Part shown: positions 58,485-64,000 of the stretch, piece after piece
Layout: the number at the start of each line of letters is the position of its first letter
Numbering within the stretch: the stretch's first letter is position 1
Assembly (NCBI GenBank): GCA_963922205.1
Contig: CAWUHX010000342.1
Location: forward strand, 186,001 to 250,000
DNA: 64,000 nt
Source of the DNA: Romanomermis culicivorax
Taxonomy: Eukaryota > Nematoda > Enoplea > Mermithida > Mermithidae
Direction: 5' to 3'
Position numbers and translations under genes: made by a program
The notes under the pieces: model-generated
Told to the model about the DNA's origin: nothing
The model's input: only the letters and a program-made list of their open reading frames with translations
The model's database searches: none

Positions 58485-60270
58485 ATGAAGTCGGAAGCTG
58501 ATCTCCCTTCACAGATCGAGAACAAAGTCCAGGCAGCATTTGAGAATGCTCTTGGACCCCTCAACCAAAAGTTAGAGGCCATGAATGGTCGGAGGCACCC
58601 TCCCGTGTCCAGCTTTATGGCCCCTCCCACCTTCTCCGGTGCTTTTGGTGAGTCTATCACCGATTTTATGTCGCATCTTACTCGTTTCTTTACACTCCAG
58701 GGTGTAAGCGAAACGGATCATGCGTATAAAATCGCTTTTCTGGAGTCATGCCTCACGGGTCCTGCTCTCGCCTCCTACCGGGACTTTAGCAGCAGCACTC
58801 CAATACCTACCCGCTACGAAGAGTTTACGGCTTTTCTACGGAGAGATTTTCTGGTAGGGCGCGACTCTGATCTGCATCAGCAGCTGATCCAAGATCGACT
58901 GCAGAAGCCGACAGAGTCCGCGATAGTCTACCTTGAGCACCTCAAGAGACTATCCAGGGTAGCGTATCCAGATCTCGCGACGGATGTCCGAGATTCTATC
59001 ATCAAACCTATCTTTCTGCGGGGACTGAAGCCGGTCCTCCGAGATAGTATCAAGTTTAGGAAGTTCACGACTCTTGAAGGGACACTCAAGGCAGCCTGTT
59101 ACGCAGAATCCCAAATCTTTCGGGACGAGATCCGGTACACTGCTCCATCTAACGCCGTTTTCTCTTCAGAACCTAAACACGCCGGATATAATCCCGATAT
59201 GCCTAACAGAAGCGCAAACGGTCGTCAGAGCAATGCTCCAACGTCGTCATCCTCCGCCGATGAGGTTCGCCGCTTGAAACAGGAAATGGCCAGGCTCACG
59301 GCCCACGTAGCGAAGCTCACGGCCCAGCAACGTGCACCCACGCCAATCCAACAGACGCCGCCTCCACAGCCGTCGACACCAAATCAGTCCGCCGGGCGAC
59401 GCTCGTCAGGAGCACACCTTCAAACGTGCTCCTTCCACGGACTGTGTACACATAGCGACGCCGACTGCCTGGCCCAGCGTCCCACCAGTGCCGCTCCCGG
59501 TAACAACGCCGCTAACGGTGGTCGCTGTTATTTTTGCCGTACACGTGCCCACCCCACGGACCGATGTGACAGGCCATGCCCTCATTGTCGTCAAGTGCGA
59601 GTGCACCGATCAACTGCCTGTCCGCAGCGCAATCCGGCAAACACAGGTGAGAATGTCTACCAAGATACTGGTTATTCTTCCCAGGGGACAAATGTGTATC
59701 ATCAAAGGAATGGTTATCACCCTCCCAACGGGACAGGAAACCATTATCGGCAGCCCATACGCAGCAACAACGCCGTTGGGGCTACCGATGGCCCTCCTCA
59801 TCCAGATCCTCTTGACCTGGATGATGAGGCACTTGCTGAACACCTGACAGATTCTTCACAACAGTGTTATCCTGTCTGCGTAATCAGTATTGGATTTTCA
59901 GTGGTCCAAGCAGCCCAGGTACCCGTACCGATGAACGTATCGGACATACCGCTGCCACCACCACCACCAAAGTATGCGATGCCGGTCACTCTGGACCCCT
60001 CGACGACACCGCAGTTTGTTGGCCACGCTAACATCCTCGCATCGTATCGCATTCCTAAAATTAAGACTGCCGAGCCAGCTCCAGCCGCGAACACGACGTC
60101 TTCGGCGCCACCGGCCCGCATCATCCCTCCAGGACCACCGCCTTCGATCCCCACGGATTCGGCTACGGAAGTCCTCGACCAGGTCGAGCCCATGAATTTG
60201 TCAGGTATACTACCTTCTTCTTCAGGTGATCCTAGAGTAGGAACCAGAAATCTATCTCAGTCCACGACTC
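58485..60270 (+). CDS. Gag of the Env-bearing element (N-terminal part of the long frame)
   Basis: The first in-frame ATG at 58485 has a purine at -3; the frame opens after a TAG at 58320. Residues about 20-40 are a short helix. A capsid-like domain follows (APPTFSGAFGESITDFMSHL ... FLRRDFL ... AIVYLEHLKRLSRVAYPD ... FLRGLKP), then a leucine-rich coiled segment (VRRLKQEMARLTAHVAKL). The zinc region is HGLCTHSDADC, then knuckle CYFCRTRAHPTDRC (residue 348 on) and a second CPHCRQVRVHRSTAC. The C-terminus is Pro/Ser-rich with a PLPPPPPKY stretch. Gag should assemble particles and bind genomic RNA. No stop separates it from what follows; either it continues in the same frame or switches to the overlapping frame at 60236-61027. 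Confidence 0.85.
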
Positions 60271-61040: not shown

Positions 61041-64000
61041 GCCAGATTTGTGAAATTGAGTGAACACTTACAAATTACGTTTGTACAGTTGTTTTTGACA
61101 ATAAAATTGACCTTGGTAGCATCACTGTTTCTAGGGGTGAGTTTGTCAGCACTGGCGGCTCAGTATCAATTTTGCGGTCTCTCAAGAAGCGGACATCCAC
61201 TTGAGCTACCCCAGCGTGTAGAGTGTAAACCACCGCAATCTTCATGGAGCCCGCGGCGCATGAATGTTACGGTGTATGTCCCTAGCTCGGACCCGATTAC
61301 AGCCACAGCGTGGAAATGCACATTGCGCTCCCGCAAAGTCTGCACCAACACTGGTTTCTTCGGCTCTAGGGGCATCACTGCAGACGTCATTACCACTCAG
61401 CACTTAGCGCCTGCGGCATGCACGCTAGCACATCGCACTAAGATGTTTGGTTCACAAAGACTTGTCGGCATTCGCCCTGGCTTTTATAGCACAAACCAAA
61501 CATTGGAAGTGATGTACGAATGGTGCTGCAGCGACGTCTGCAAGACAGTGACTAACCTCTTCATCGAGGAGGGACAAGTCGCTTCGTGGGACGGCACTAC
61601 GGCCCTAAGCACCTTAGGCGATGTAGGTGGATGCAGTCCCACTGCAGGCCAGTGCACTACTCTAGACGGGGTCATTGTCTGGCCTGCACAAAACTTCACG
61701 GCGCGGTGTCATTATCACCCCAAGGGAAATTACACTGCGTCCATGTCAGGGAACCACGTCATCATCGATGATCTACAGGTTGCCCTCAAGATCCCGGGAA
61801 ACTCCCGCGTCTTCCAACTGTGCCCAGAACTACGTTCCACCACAGTCCGGACGGATCAGGGTCTTCTCCTTTGCATCCACGGGAGATACAATTTGACCCA
61901 AAACTTGTTCAGAGTGGCAACGGACAGCCGTCTCGATCCTGTCAATGCCAAACTGAACTATCTGGCTCAGCAGATCAAGGAGTCGGAAATTAACGGTTTC
62001 CGGTTCACGTGGCTTGAGCTTTGCTCTCACTCTCAACGCTATCTTGATCTGACTTGGCAGTTGCTTCGCTTCGACCCTACCCTGGGTGCCCGGGCATTCC
62101 TCCAGAGGAATGACCTGACGGCGGAATTCACAGGCGATGCGCTGACAATATGGCCGTGTCAGAAGGTCAACGCCACCTACGTTTACCACTCGTACCGGGT
62201 GGGGAACGTTTGCTACAAGTACTTACCTGTACAGGTTGGCAGCACCATCTACTTCGCCACCCCCGGTGGTCCGGATCTCATTAAATCTAGCCCAATTGTG
62301 CCGTGTCATCACCACTTTACAGGGATTTTCCGAAATCGCTCGGGCTGGTTTACTGAGTCTAGCGCGGTCCATGTGAGCCACATCCCACTGGAACTCTTCT
62401 GGAAGCAGCGTTTCAACATCACTCACTTTGGGGCACCGGCGCTCTTCCACGACCAGTTGGCGATGACCCCTTCAAACTTTGCCTTCTTTAAACAGTACGT
62501 TTACAAGACTGAGCAAATTGAAGCGGTACTCAACCGGCTGGTAAACTTTACCGCTGGTCTATCCCTGCAACCAGACGCCATCTACCAGGCCTTTGCAGGG
62601 GTAGGAACGGACATCAAGGCCTCTCTGGAAGGTGTCGGTTTGGCAGCAAACCATGTTATTACGGGTCAACAACACACCCTCGCCCAGGGCTTGCATGCTG
62701 TCCTGAGCAGGCCGGTCCAGTTGATCTTTAACATCCTAATTACCCTGACAGTGCTGATCGGTGCCGGATACCTTGCCTATCTTGGTGTATCTTATTATCT
62801 CAGCTACCGTCTGCGGAGCAAACAGGTCAGGTTTGTTAGCCGTTTCTCCCCGTTGGGTCTTTATCGTAAAGTCCAACGCTGGATCGGTTTTCACTACGTG
62901 CAAAACGATGTGCCCTCCCAGCTTGACCGAATCACACCGTGTTTCGTCGTGCTGCTGGACACCAAGGAAACTCCTGCTTTCCTTGACACGGGTTGCCCAC
63001 GCACTATCATTAGCCAACGTCTTCATAAGGCCTTGGCTAAAGAAAGTCCGAAGGCGGTCATGGCGTTCCAGCAACATCACGACTTTAACCCATTGATGAG
63101 CATCAATGGTAAAGCCGTTCATACCATCCTTTCGGGACCATATGAAATCATGTTGCCCGGAAACCGCCAGCCGAACACACGGATCGATGTACATCTCCAT
63201 GTGTGCAAGACTACGTCTCCCTTCTGGGCACCTGTTGACCTCATACTCGGACTGGACTTCTTAGAACAGTTCAAGAACATTATGTTTGACTACCAACGTA
63301 ATGTTTGTCGGCTGGACGCGGTAGAATTACCCCTCCTGCTGACCATGCCGGAGATTGACCAGATCGACCCCTGGTGGGAGAACACCCGTGCTCTCTCGCG
63401 GAATTCACACAGGTCGGGATCACGATCGTGGTCCAGGGCTTCGTCCATCTCTCGGCCACACTCACGGGCCTCCTCAGTTGCCTCATCACGTGGGTCAACT
63501 AGGGGATCCCGGGCCTCTTCTAGACGGGCAAGTGGTCATCTGTCGACCTTGCACGGGTCAGGTTGCCCTCGACCTCCGCCTGGAACCTCTCCAGTTACGC
63601 TAGAGAAGGGCCGATACCGTGAGCCAAGTGATTCAGATGCTCCGACATCACCCGTGCCAAACGCGCCTCCGCTCTCGGACACCGAGGTTGAATCACTAGG
63701 AGCTACTCAGAGTCCGAAGGATCACTCAGACCACGTACTAACGGTGCAGGATGAGTCCACCCTTTTAAATGACCCGGAACCCTCCGTCGGATATGCTCTA
63801 GTAGGTCTTCTGCGTCGTACGGGACTGCCGATTCCAAAGCGGTCCGGTAAGACCAAACACGCTAGTGGTGCCACCACACCTGATTCCGGTCATGTGGTCA
63901 CTGCTTTCTACCCAAATGATATTCGGACACCCCATATCAAAGTTCTCCTCAACAACTGGGTAGAAGCGAAGGCACTGGTCGACACAGGAGCTGTTTTCTC
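61041..64000 (+). CDS. Env-like membrane glycoprotein fused in frame to retropepsin, partial
   Basis: This continues the frame opened at 58485. A signal-peptide-like hydrophobic run (61074-61163) ends in ALAA. A Cys-rich ectodomain of about 520 residues follows, with about nine N-X-S/T sites, ending in an amphipathic region. A 25-30 residue membrane anchor (62721-62811) is followed by a basic RLRSK tail. Without a stop it runs into an aspartic protease: DTG at 62985-62993 and LILGLDFLEQF at about 63240. Then a Ser/Arg repeat region (63400-63530), an acidic Ser/Pro linker, and a second DTG at 63981. The role of such a glycoprotein would be membrane fusion; the protease processes polyproteins. 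No fusion-protein family could be assigned by eye. Env could be translated within the polyprotein or from a spliced RNA using the acceptor at 61031-61040. Confidence 0.75.
62880..63320 (+). other. Retropepsin domain 1 within the polyprotein
   Basis: Residues about 1466-1612 counted from 58485: PCFVVLLDTKETPAFLDTGC with catalytic DTG, a flap-like segment with SINGKAVHTILSGPYEI, and VDLILGLDFLEQFKNIMFDY. It lies 170 nt after the membrane anchor, so it would be on the cytosolic side. Confidence 0.8.
63900..64000 (+). other. Second aspartic-protease-like DTG motif, cut by window end
   Basis: IKVLLNNWVEAKALVDTGAVF resembles the N-terminal strand and active site of a retropepsin (residue 1833 for the Asp). 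Only the first third is in view. Either the element has two proteases or domain 1 is a divergent relative and this is the pol protease. Confidence 0.6.

What the first reader, a model, noticed from the sequence alone, without database searches (positions are those of the whole stretch)
58485..64000. A single uninterrupted frame reads Gag, then a membrane glycoprotein, then protease
Seen: no stop codon in frame 3 from 58485 to the window edge (at least 1838 codons), with Gag zinc knuckles, a signal-anchor glycoprotein and a retropepsin in that order. Known: in retroviruses and errantiviruses env lies after pol. A glycoprotein placed between Gag and protease is a layout I do not recognise for any described Ty3/gypsy or BEL element. 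Inference: either an acquired glycoprotein gene in a new position or a new polyprotein strategy.
Basis: partly seen in the sequence, partly recalled or inferred. Interest (0 to 1): 0.9.

Follow-up and report, generated by a model that had tools for sequence, protein, structure and literature searches.

The report
Retroelement with envelope inside its polyprotein
A high-copy virus-like element in a mosquito-parasitic nematode carries a captured viral envelope gene fused between its shell and enzyme genes, and seems to use a small removable intron to choose between making shell protein only and making the whole set.

Summary
The window's assembly matches Romanomermis culicivorax v2 in size and scaffold number. 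The frame runs from 58485 to a stop about 3,046 codons on: Gag, glycoprotein, retropepsin 1, retropepsin 2, RT, RNase H, integrase, inside LTRs, with no env after integrase. Among solved structures RT is closest to Ty3; the glycoprotein matches Pfam PF24664 (mononega/chuvirus-type fusion proteins). The glycoprotein query found 70 scored places (capped list, 97-100% identity); 50 of 70 lie in an open frame of at least 3,090 aa. Distant relatives show the same order.

In 60291-61027 the selected protein lies in the -1 frame (X, 237 aa from its first ATG). Three separate copies lack exactly 86 nt (60205-60290, GT...AG), which joins Gag to X. A diverged family keeps an 86-nt GT...AG interval, X and the glycoprotein (2 of 2 copies read), and the open through-frame in 1 of 2.

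Best reading: spliced RNA makes Gag-X; unspliced RNA makes a Gag-glycoprotein-Pol polyprotein crossing the membrane twice. Splicing is well supported, translation through X moderately, particle function inferred. My open-access searches listed no Ty3/gypsy precedent.

The parts
53375..54836 (+). 5' LTR, TGTCAC...GTGACA; partner 3' LTR at L009:4144-5564 (outside the window)
   Evidence: 96.9% by blastn, gaps in a GC repeat included; 4 substitutions in the aligned LTR proper; flanks share ACAG (4-bp target duplication, read by eye)
54837..54848 (+). putative primer binding site TGGCGAGGCTGG directly after the LTR
   Evidence: Sequence; the tRNA was not identified
54837..58484 (+). long 5' leader (about 3.65 kb) with spaced TGACGTCWGCAA repeats at 56006-56565
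58485..60204 (+). Gag, 573 aa, frame 3: capsid (about 58653-59099) and three zinc knuckles (about 59427-59621)
60205..60290 (+). 86-nt facultative intron, CAG|GTATAC...TTGTTCACAG|CG; read through in the Gag frame when kept
   Evidence: Precisely missing in three separate copies L020, L093, L094; same-length GT...AG interval in the diverged copies L099 and L100
60291..61027 (+). X, frame 2 (-1 to Gag); first ATG 60314, 237 aa from there; joined to Gag by the splice; stop 61025-61027
60205..61088 (+). linker in the Gag/glycoprotein frame: stop-poor, residues not conserved over X
61089..61145 (+). hydrophobic segment, signal/anchor of the glycoprotein; no in-frame ATG after 60870 and before 61260
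61158..62720 (+). glycoprotein ectodomain, 521 aa, 17 Cys, 9 N-glycosylation sequons, no RxxR site
62721..62777 (+). C-terminal transmembrane segment of the glycoprotein
62880..63353 (+). retropepsin 1 (LDTG ... LILGLDFL), probable
   Evidence: gag-asp_proteas E 0.004, below cut-off; N/S 0.09
63939..64000 (+). start of retropepsin 2 (VDTG); goes on outside the window to about G000:C342:250211, then RT, RNase H and integrase in L009
   Evidence: L096, gag-asp_proteas E 3.1e-8

Best explanation
This is an LTR element of the Ty3/gypsy kind that captured a mononega/chuvirus-type fusion glycoprotein and carries it in frame between Gag and the protease. One intron at the end of Gag decides the product. 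When the 86-nt intron is removed, Gag is joined to X in the -1 frame and translation stops after X: a Gag-X shell protein. When it is kept, the ribosome stays in the Gag frame through the overlap and makes Gag-linker-glycoprotein-PR1-PR2-RT-RNaseH-IN. The glycoprotein's hydrophobic signal would then leave Gag on the cytosolic side, put the ectodomain in the lumen and, after the second transmembrane segment, bring protease and Pol back to the cytosol, so that one polyprotein would deliver shell, envelope and enzymes to one membrane site, as flavivirus-like polyproteins do (recalled). Shown: family, order, open frames, selection in each frame, recurrent precise loss of the 86 nt. Inferred: translation through the overlap, topology, cleavage, enveloped particles.
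For: The frame continues to integrase and no env follows. 70 scored places match the glycoprotein query (capped list), 69 of 70 without a stop in it, 50 of 70 in an open frame of at least 3,090 aa. N/S in 12 copies: glycoprotein 0.11, PR1 0.09, PR2 0.05, X in its own frame 0.28, the same stretch in the Gag frame 1.47; in 70 rows: X frame 0.39, Gag frame 0.98. Splicing: three copies lack exactly 60205-60290; their nearest relatives all keep it (0.35%, 1.69%, 2.2% distant) and they differ from each other by 3.7-5.4%; on a midpoint-rooted tree their common ancestor spans 68 of 79 rows. The splice joins frame 3 to frame 2. A diverged family has a GT...AG interval at the same place, also 86 nt, in 2 of 2 copies read, and 7 of 27 database X-like proteins carry Gag's end joined to X there (gene models, judged by eye). 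Through-frame: in L099 no Gag-frame stop over X against 3.3 expected (P 0.0043; control frame 5 against 5.1), in L100 1 against 4.3 (P 0.0105; control 8 against 6.4); variants making a Gag-frame stop 8 against 15.1 expected (P 0.0115), control frame 17 against 19.7. The glycoprotein has no nearby ATG of its own. P0004 and P0005 have Gag-gp and gp-PR-RT fused. Best solved-structure match of RT-RH is Ty3 RT, E 2.3e-85.
Against: No RNA or protein data were examined. Gag-frame stops in the overlap occur in 11 of 70 rows and in L100. The window's own stop test is weak: 0 stops against 2.4 (P 0.03) or 7.6 (P 0.0002) expected, but the control frame is also low (3 against 6.3, P 0.05; 3 against 9.9, P 0.006). 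Split variant sets are not significant (shared by 2 or more: 3 against 6.8, P 0.057; by 4 or more: 0 against 2.4, P 0.07; singletons: 5 against 8.3, P 0.12). P0005 starts with its own Met. An acceptor-like CCCCTCAG ending at 61040, kept in 69 of 70 rows, leaves room for a separate spliced env mRNA. Four of the 27 database proteins (P0022, P0024, P0033, P0034) have X's start joined to other upstream sequence. Structure predictions failed (pLDDT 43 and 38); PR1 is below every Pfam cut-off shown.
Confidence: 0.65

Rival explanations
1. The glycoprotein is made, as in retroviruses, from a separate spliced mRNA (for example from an upstream ATG exon to the acceptor-like site ending at 61040). Pol comes from another splice or from the full RNA; the open through-frame is mostly a by-product.
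For: Acceptor-like CCCCTCAG kept in 69 of 70 rows; the element clearly is spliced; no ATG beside the signal segment; 11 of 70 rows have a Gag-frame stop in the overlap; the control frame in the window is also stop-poor.
Against: The through-frame is stop-free in the window and in L099, whose aligned X residues differ at 34%; P 0.0043 in L099 with the control frame as expected; 50 of 70 places have frames of at least 3,090 aa; Gag and glycoprotein are fused in P0004.
Confidence: 0.24
2. X is reached by -1 ribosomal frameshifting rather than splicing; the 86-nt losses are chance deletions between CAG repeats.
For: X lies in the -1 frame; a 3-nt CAG repeat flanks the lost segment.
Against: The same 86 nt were lost on three backgrounds, with GT...AG ends; the diverged family has an 86-nt GT...AG interval whose ends differ in sequence; I saw no slippery heptamer between 60236 and 60290 (by eye).
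Confidence: 0.05
3. The glycoprotein is a passenger: the element now spreads only inside the genome and the envelope has no entry role.
For: High copy number in one genome fits intragenomic spread; there are no particle data.
Against: N/S 0.11 in 12 copies; the glycoprotein start is 79-81% identical to the diverged family's while Gag's end is 48-51% and X 50-53%.
Confidence: 0.12
4. Assembly artefact or chimera.
For: None found.
Against: 50 of 70 places on many contigs share the long frame; the assembly was made from PacBio HiFi and Nanopore reads (PMC10879605, passages seen).
Confidence: 0.01

Closest known systems
Ty3/gypsy (Metaviridae) LTR elements
   Same: Gag with zinc knuckles, PR-RT-RNase H-integrase order, TG...CA LTRs, RT closest to Ty3 among solved structures
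   Different: Glycoprotein between Gag and PR in the same frame; two retropepsins; overlapping X; facultative intron
Anakin: BEL/Pao elements with chuvirus glycoprotein (PMC7642597, abstract and passages seen)
   Same: LTR element with a captured glycoprotein of the same broad viral class
   Different: Anakin's Pol is BEL/Pao, this one looks Ty3-like; the passages I saw do not state where in Anakin the glycoprotein lies
Atlas virus of hookworm (PMC9094657, passages seen)
   Same: Nematode element with Gag, Pol and Env in a single ORF
   Different: Atlas is BEL/Pao, its Env is phlebovirus-like and last, and the coding sequence is said to have no introns
BARE1 of barley (PMC3735527, abstract and passages seen)
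   Same: Single-ORF element; a small facultative intron (104 nt, CAG/GTAT donor) at the end of gag gives a Gag-only RNA
   Different: BARE1 is copia-type without env; splicing there gives a stop three residues on, here a conserved 237-aa extension
TelKA of bdelloid rotifers (PMC5408684, abstract and passages seen)
   Same: LTR element with a fusion protein from negative-strand RNA viruses
   Different: Paramyxovirus-type, as ORF3 after pol

Membership tests
Ty3/gypsy (Metaviridae) | RT-RNase H closest to Ty3 | tested here: met
   solved structures only: Ty3 RT 4ol8 E 2.3e-85, best chain of another element 6.8e-53; no tree was built
Ty3/gypsy (Metaviridae) | PR-RT-RH-IN order with integrase last | tested here: met
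Ty3/gypsy (Metaviridae) | LTRs with TG...CA and short target duplication | tested here: met
   TGTCAC...GTGACA, ACAG (by eye)
Ty3/gypsy (Metaviridae) | tRNA-complementary PBS after the 5' LTR | tested here: inconclusive
   TGG start present; tRNA not identified
Errantivirus / retrovirus layout | env downstream of pol | tested here: not met
   about 518 nt between stop and 3' LTR; glycoprotein lies before PR
Anakin (BEL/Pao + chuvirus glycoprotein) | BEL/Pao-type Pol | tested here: inconclusive
   Ty3 is the best solved-structure match and Gag matches Ty3_capsid, which speaks against it; no BEL/Pao sequence was compared
Atlas-type Gag-Pol-Env element | Env at the C-terminus, phlebovirus GN-GC type | tested here: not met
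Monjiviricetes-type fusion glycoprotein (Pfam PF24664) | Score above the curated cut-off | tested here: met
   54.9 bits against 27; 3 of 4 relatives too (P0004, P0005, P0008; not the partial P0006)
Class III fusion fold | gB/VSV-G-like fold | tested here: inconclusive
   The 2 PDB matches of profile A2 at E<=1 are envelope glycoprotein B (0.035, 0.052); AlphaFold model too poor
BARE1-like splice switch | Small facultative intron at Gag's end whose removal takes Pol out of frame | tested here: met
   Genomic footprints only; no RNA seen

The most novel reading that the evidence does not exclude
A retroelement with a membrane-spanning Gag-Env-Pol polyprotein: the envelope itself, not a stop codon or frameshift, stands between shell and enzymes, and intron retention decides between Gag-X and the all-in-one polyprotein. 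It would be a retroelement lineage that delivers shell, fusogen and enzymes from one chain at one membrane site, like flavivirus-type polyproteins, with an overprinted Gag domain preserving both readings.
Probability: 0.5. Interest if true: 0.85.

Novelty: new variant of a known kind. Interest (0 to 1): 0.74.

Why it matters
Env capture is usually described as a gene after pol. Here the envelope is built into the polyprotein ahead of the protease and has been kept while the end of Gag diverged, so envelope position and expression are freer than assumed. The element also seems to set the Gag:Pol ratio by splicing into a second, overlapping, conserved protein. The nearest described case is BARE1; the same paper also names splicing in copia and in the Gypsy elements Bagy2, Ogre and CRR (PMC3735527, passages). 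One survey reported no clear capture of such glycoproteins by Gypsy elements (PMC10084718, passages). The many near-identical copies make expression and particle formation directly testable in this nematode.

Tried and rejected
Frameshifting to reach X: set aside after the 86-nt losses were found. L092 and L095, first taken for spliced copies, carry 1-nt deletions near the end of X instead. AlphaFold for the glycoprotein (pLDDT 43) and PR1 (pLDDT 38) was too poor for fold searches; none was run. IMG/VR scan: 133 stretches matched a pattern, none a relative. The profile search for the glycoprotein returned P0004 and the new P0008. X: no Pfam or PHROG match; 5 PDB matches, best E 0.019 over 23 residues, taken as chance. 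The SL1 RNA search was uninformative, as its controls rang nowhere. No Rfam match in the window. The first alignment of copies was spoiled by unreversed minus-strand loci and was redone. Paper searches on env between gag and pol or on doubled proteases: 2 papers on plant Sireviruses, not read; 69 papers, 20 listed, none naming this layout in title or abstract start; 1, unrelated; 0.
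Full report
What is there. The window is G000:C342:186001-250000 of a 359,112,060-base genome in 595 contigs. The paper on Romanomermis culicivorax v2 gives 359.1 Mb and 595 scaffolds (PMC10879605, passages seen), and 27 of 27 database matches of protein X at E<=1 are from R. culicivorax, so I take the host to be this mosquito-parasitic mermithid nematode. The next 6 kb (L009) continue the frame to a stop at L009:3625, with RVT_1 (1.8e-34), RNase H and integrase domains. LTRs flank the element: 53375-54836 and L009:4144-5564, with 4 substitutions in the aligned LTR proper, TGTCAC...GTGACA ends and a shared ACAG (ACAG read by eye). 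Between the ORF stop and the 3' LTR lie about 518 nt and no env.

Which kind of element. Among solved structures RT-RNase H matches Ty3 RT best (E 2.3e-85; best chain of another element 6.8e-53), and Gag matches Ty3_capsid just above cut-off. I built no RT tree. The glycoprotein piece matches PF24664 Monjiviricetes_fusion at 54.9 bits (cut-off 27) and, below cut-off, BDV_G. Of its relatives, P0004, P0005 and P0008 match PF24664, the partial P0006 does not; P0004 also matches herpesvirus gB below cut-off. The two PDB matches of the three-sequence profile at E<=1 are gB, 0.035 and 0.052. A class III fusogen is likely but not shown; the AlphaFold model failed.

It is a family, not an accident. 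With the glycoprotein as query, 70 places were scored (of 4,226 candidates, a cap) and all 70 are 97-100% identical; 69 of 70 have no stop in the match, and 50 of 70 have an open frame of at least 3,090 aa (my count). Ranking by score favours intact copies. P0004 is Gag plus glycoprotein in one ORF; P0005 is glycoprotein, protease and the start of RT in one ORF; they are 36% and 33% identical to the query. Their organisms are not given. I could not look for members without a glycoprotein (one search did not complete).

The frame is not one conserved protein. In 12 copies (L010-L021) variable sites at frame-3 codon positions 1/2/3 are 21/6/55 in the glycoprotein, but 13/35/14 in 60281-61027, where the fast position is the third of frame 2. 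N/S per site in these copies: Gag end 0.29, X in frame 2 0.28, the same stretch in frame 3 1.47, glycoprotein 0.11, PR1 0.09, PR1-PR2 linker 0.24, PR2 0.05. In 70 rows (the window and L023-L091) N/S is 0.39 in frame 2 and 0.98 in frame 3. Of the 150 places, 30 came as loci and 40 more were fetched; the list for these left out rows with stops in X, partial matches and some copies already held or adjacent, so X is intact in this set by choice. X is 93-100% identical in 150 scored places (of 1,393 candidates, a cap).

How X is reached. L020, L093 and L094 lack exactly 60205-60290, 86 nt, CAG|GTATAC...TTCACAG|CG. L093 and L094 were fetched on purpose because X lay in a long frame; L020 came, so 3 copies give no unbiased rate. 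Their nearest relatives all have the 86 nt (0.35%, 1.69%, 2.2%), they differ from each other by 3.7-5.4%, and on a midpoint-rooted tree of 79 distinct rows their common ancestor spans 68; local supports are 0.77 to 1.0 around L020 and L093 and 0.86 for L094 with its neighbour. Of 86 rows (some copies fetched twice) 83 keep 86 nt, 82 of these with GTATAC and 82 with the same acceptor end. Removing the interval joins Gag's frame to X's frame. This is what reverse transcription of spliced RNA leaves.

A diverged family tests the idea. P0012 as query found further places with X in frames of mostly 203-219 aa (149 of 1,863 candidates scored, list cut). I read two, L099 and L100. L099: Gag end 48%, X 53%, glycoprotein start 81% identical by tblastn, and the Gag/glycoprotein frame open over all 500 codons; L100: 51%, 50%, 79%, with one stop in X's stretch and one in the glycoprotein. 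Both have a GT...AG interval of 86 nt at the same place with other end sequences (GTAAAC...TTACAG). In the 190 aligned X codons, X-frame identity is 66% and 62% against 31% and 32% in the other frame; nucleotide differences by X codon position are 48/29/115 and 53/32/111. By eye, 7 of 27 database proteins (P0009, P0011, P0015, P0016, P0028, P0029, P0035) carry Gag's end joined to X at this junction; 4 (P0022, P0024, P0033, P0034) have X's start joined to other sequence, P0010 begins at a Met in X, and 15 did not show X's start in my pattern. These are gene models, not transcripts.

Is the overlap translated in the Gag frame? In the diverged family Gag-frame stops are fewer than X codons predict: L099 0 against 3.3 (P 0.0043), control frame 5 against 5.1; L100 1 against 4.3 (P 0.0105), control 8 against 6.4. 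In the window the test does not discriminate well: 0 against 2.4 (own codons, P 0.03) or 7.6 (element usage, P 0.0002), but the control frame is low too, 3 against 6.3 (P 0.05) or 9.9 (P 0.006). Among variants 8 make a Gag-frame stop against 15.1 expected (P 0.0115), control 17 against 19.7; the split sets are not significant. Against: 11 of 70 rows have one such stop. So the stretch seems kept open though its residues are free, as a linker would be. On checking, the control made me lower the confidence from 0.68 to 0.65 and raise the first rival from 0.22 to 0.24.

How it most likely works (inference). Spliced RNA gives Gag-X; unspliced RNA gives the polyprotein. The hydrophobic segments at 61089-61145 and 62721-62777 fit a signal and an anchor, with 9 sequons and 17 cysteines between them, so Gag and Pol would face the cytosol and the ectodomain the lumen. 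No frame-3 ATG lies between 60870 and 61260. PR1 directly after the tail could free the glycoprotein, PR2 the enzymes; this is a guess. That flavivirus-type polyproteins have such topology is recalled.

Known kinds. Atlas virus has one Gag-Pol-Env ORF with Env last (PMC9094657, passages). Anakin is BEL/Pao with chuvirus glycoprotein (PMC7642597, passages). A survey found no clear Gypsy capture of such glycoproteins (PMC10084718, passages). BARE1 has a 104-nt intron giving Gag-only RNA (PMC3735527, passages). None of the papers listed in searches showed, in title or abstract start, env between gag and protease in a Ty3/gypsy element; listings were cut at 20 of 69 and 20 of 329, and subscription papers are not held.

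Noticed in passing
window 35478-50518: Remains of other gypsy-like element(s): RT 36345-37531 (34-43% to this RT), integrase 46616-47674 (32%), zinc-knuckle ORF 44725-45384, two ORFs (48391-49353, 49340-50518) without Pfam match.
   Followed up: partly
window 56006-56565: TGACGTCWGCAA repeats, mostly about 65 nt apart, in the 5' leader; they resemble a CRE core (recalled) and may be regulatory.
   Followed up: no
window 62880-63353 and 63939 onward: Two retropepsin-like domains in tandem, both under strong purifying selection; the relative P0005 shows only one by eye.
   Followed up: partly
L092, L095: Copies in which a 1-nt deletion near the end of X puts X in frame with the glycoprotein, giving open frames of 2462 and 1663 aa.
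   Followed up: partly
L017-L021, around 60726: A subfamily (5 of 12 copies aligned) lacks one 24-nt repeat unit in X.
   Followed up: partly
L097: COX1-like stretch on a contig of about 1 Mb (C117), with 11 in-frame TGA: mitochondrial copy in a nuclear contig or a chimera.
   Followed up: no
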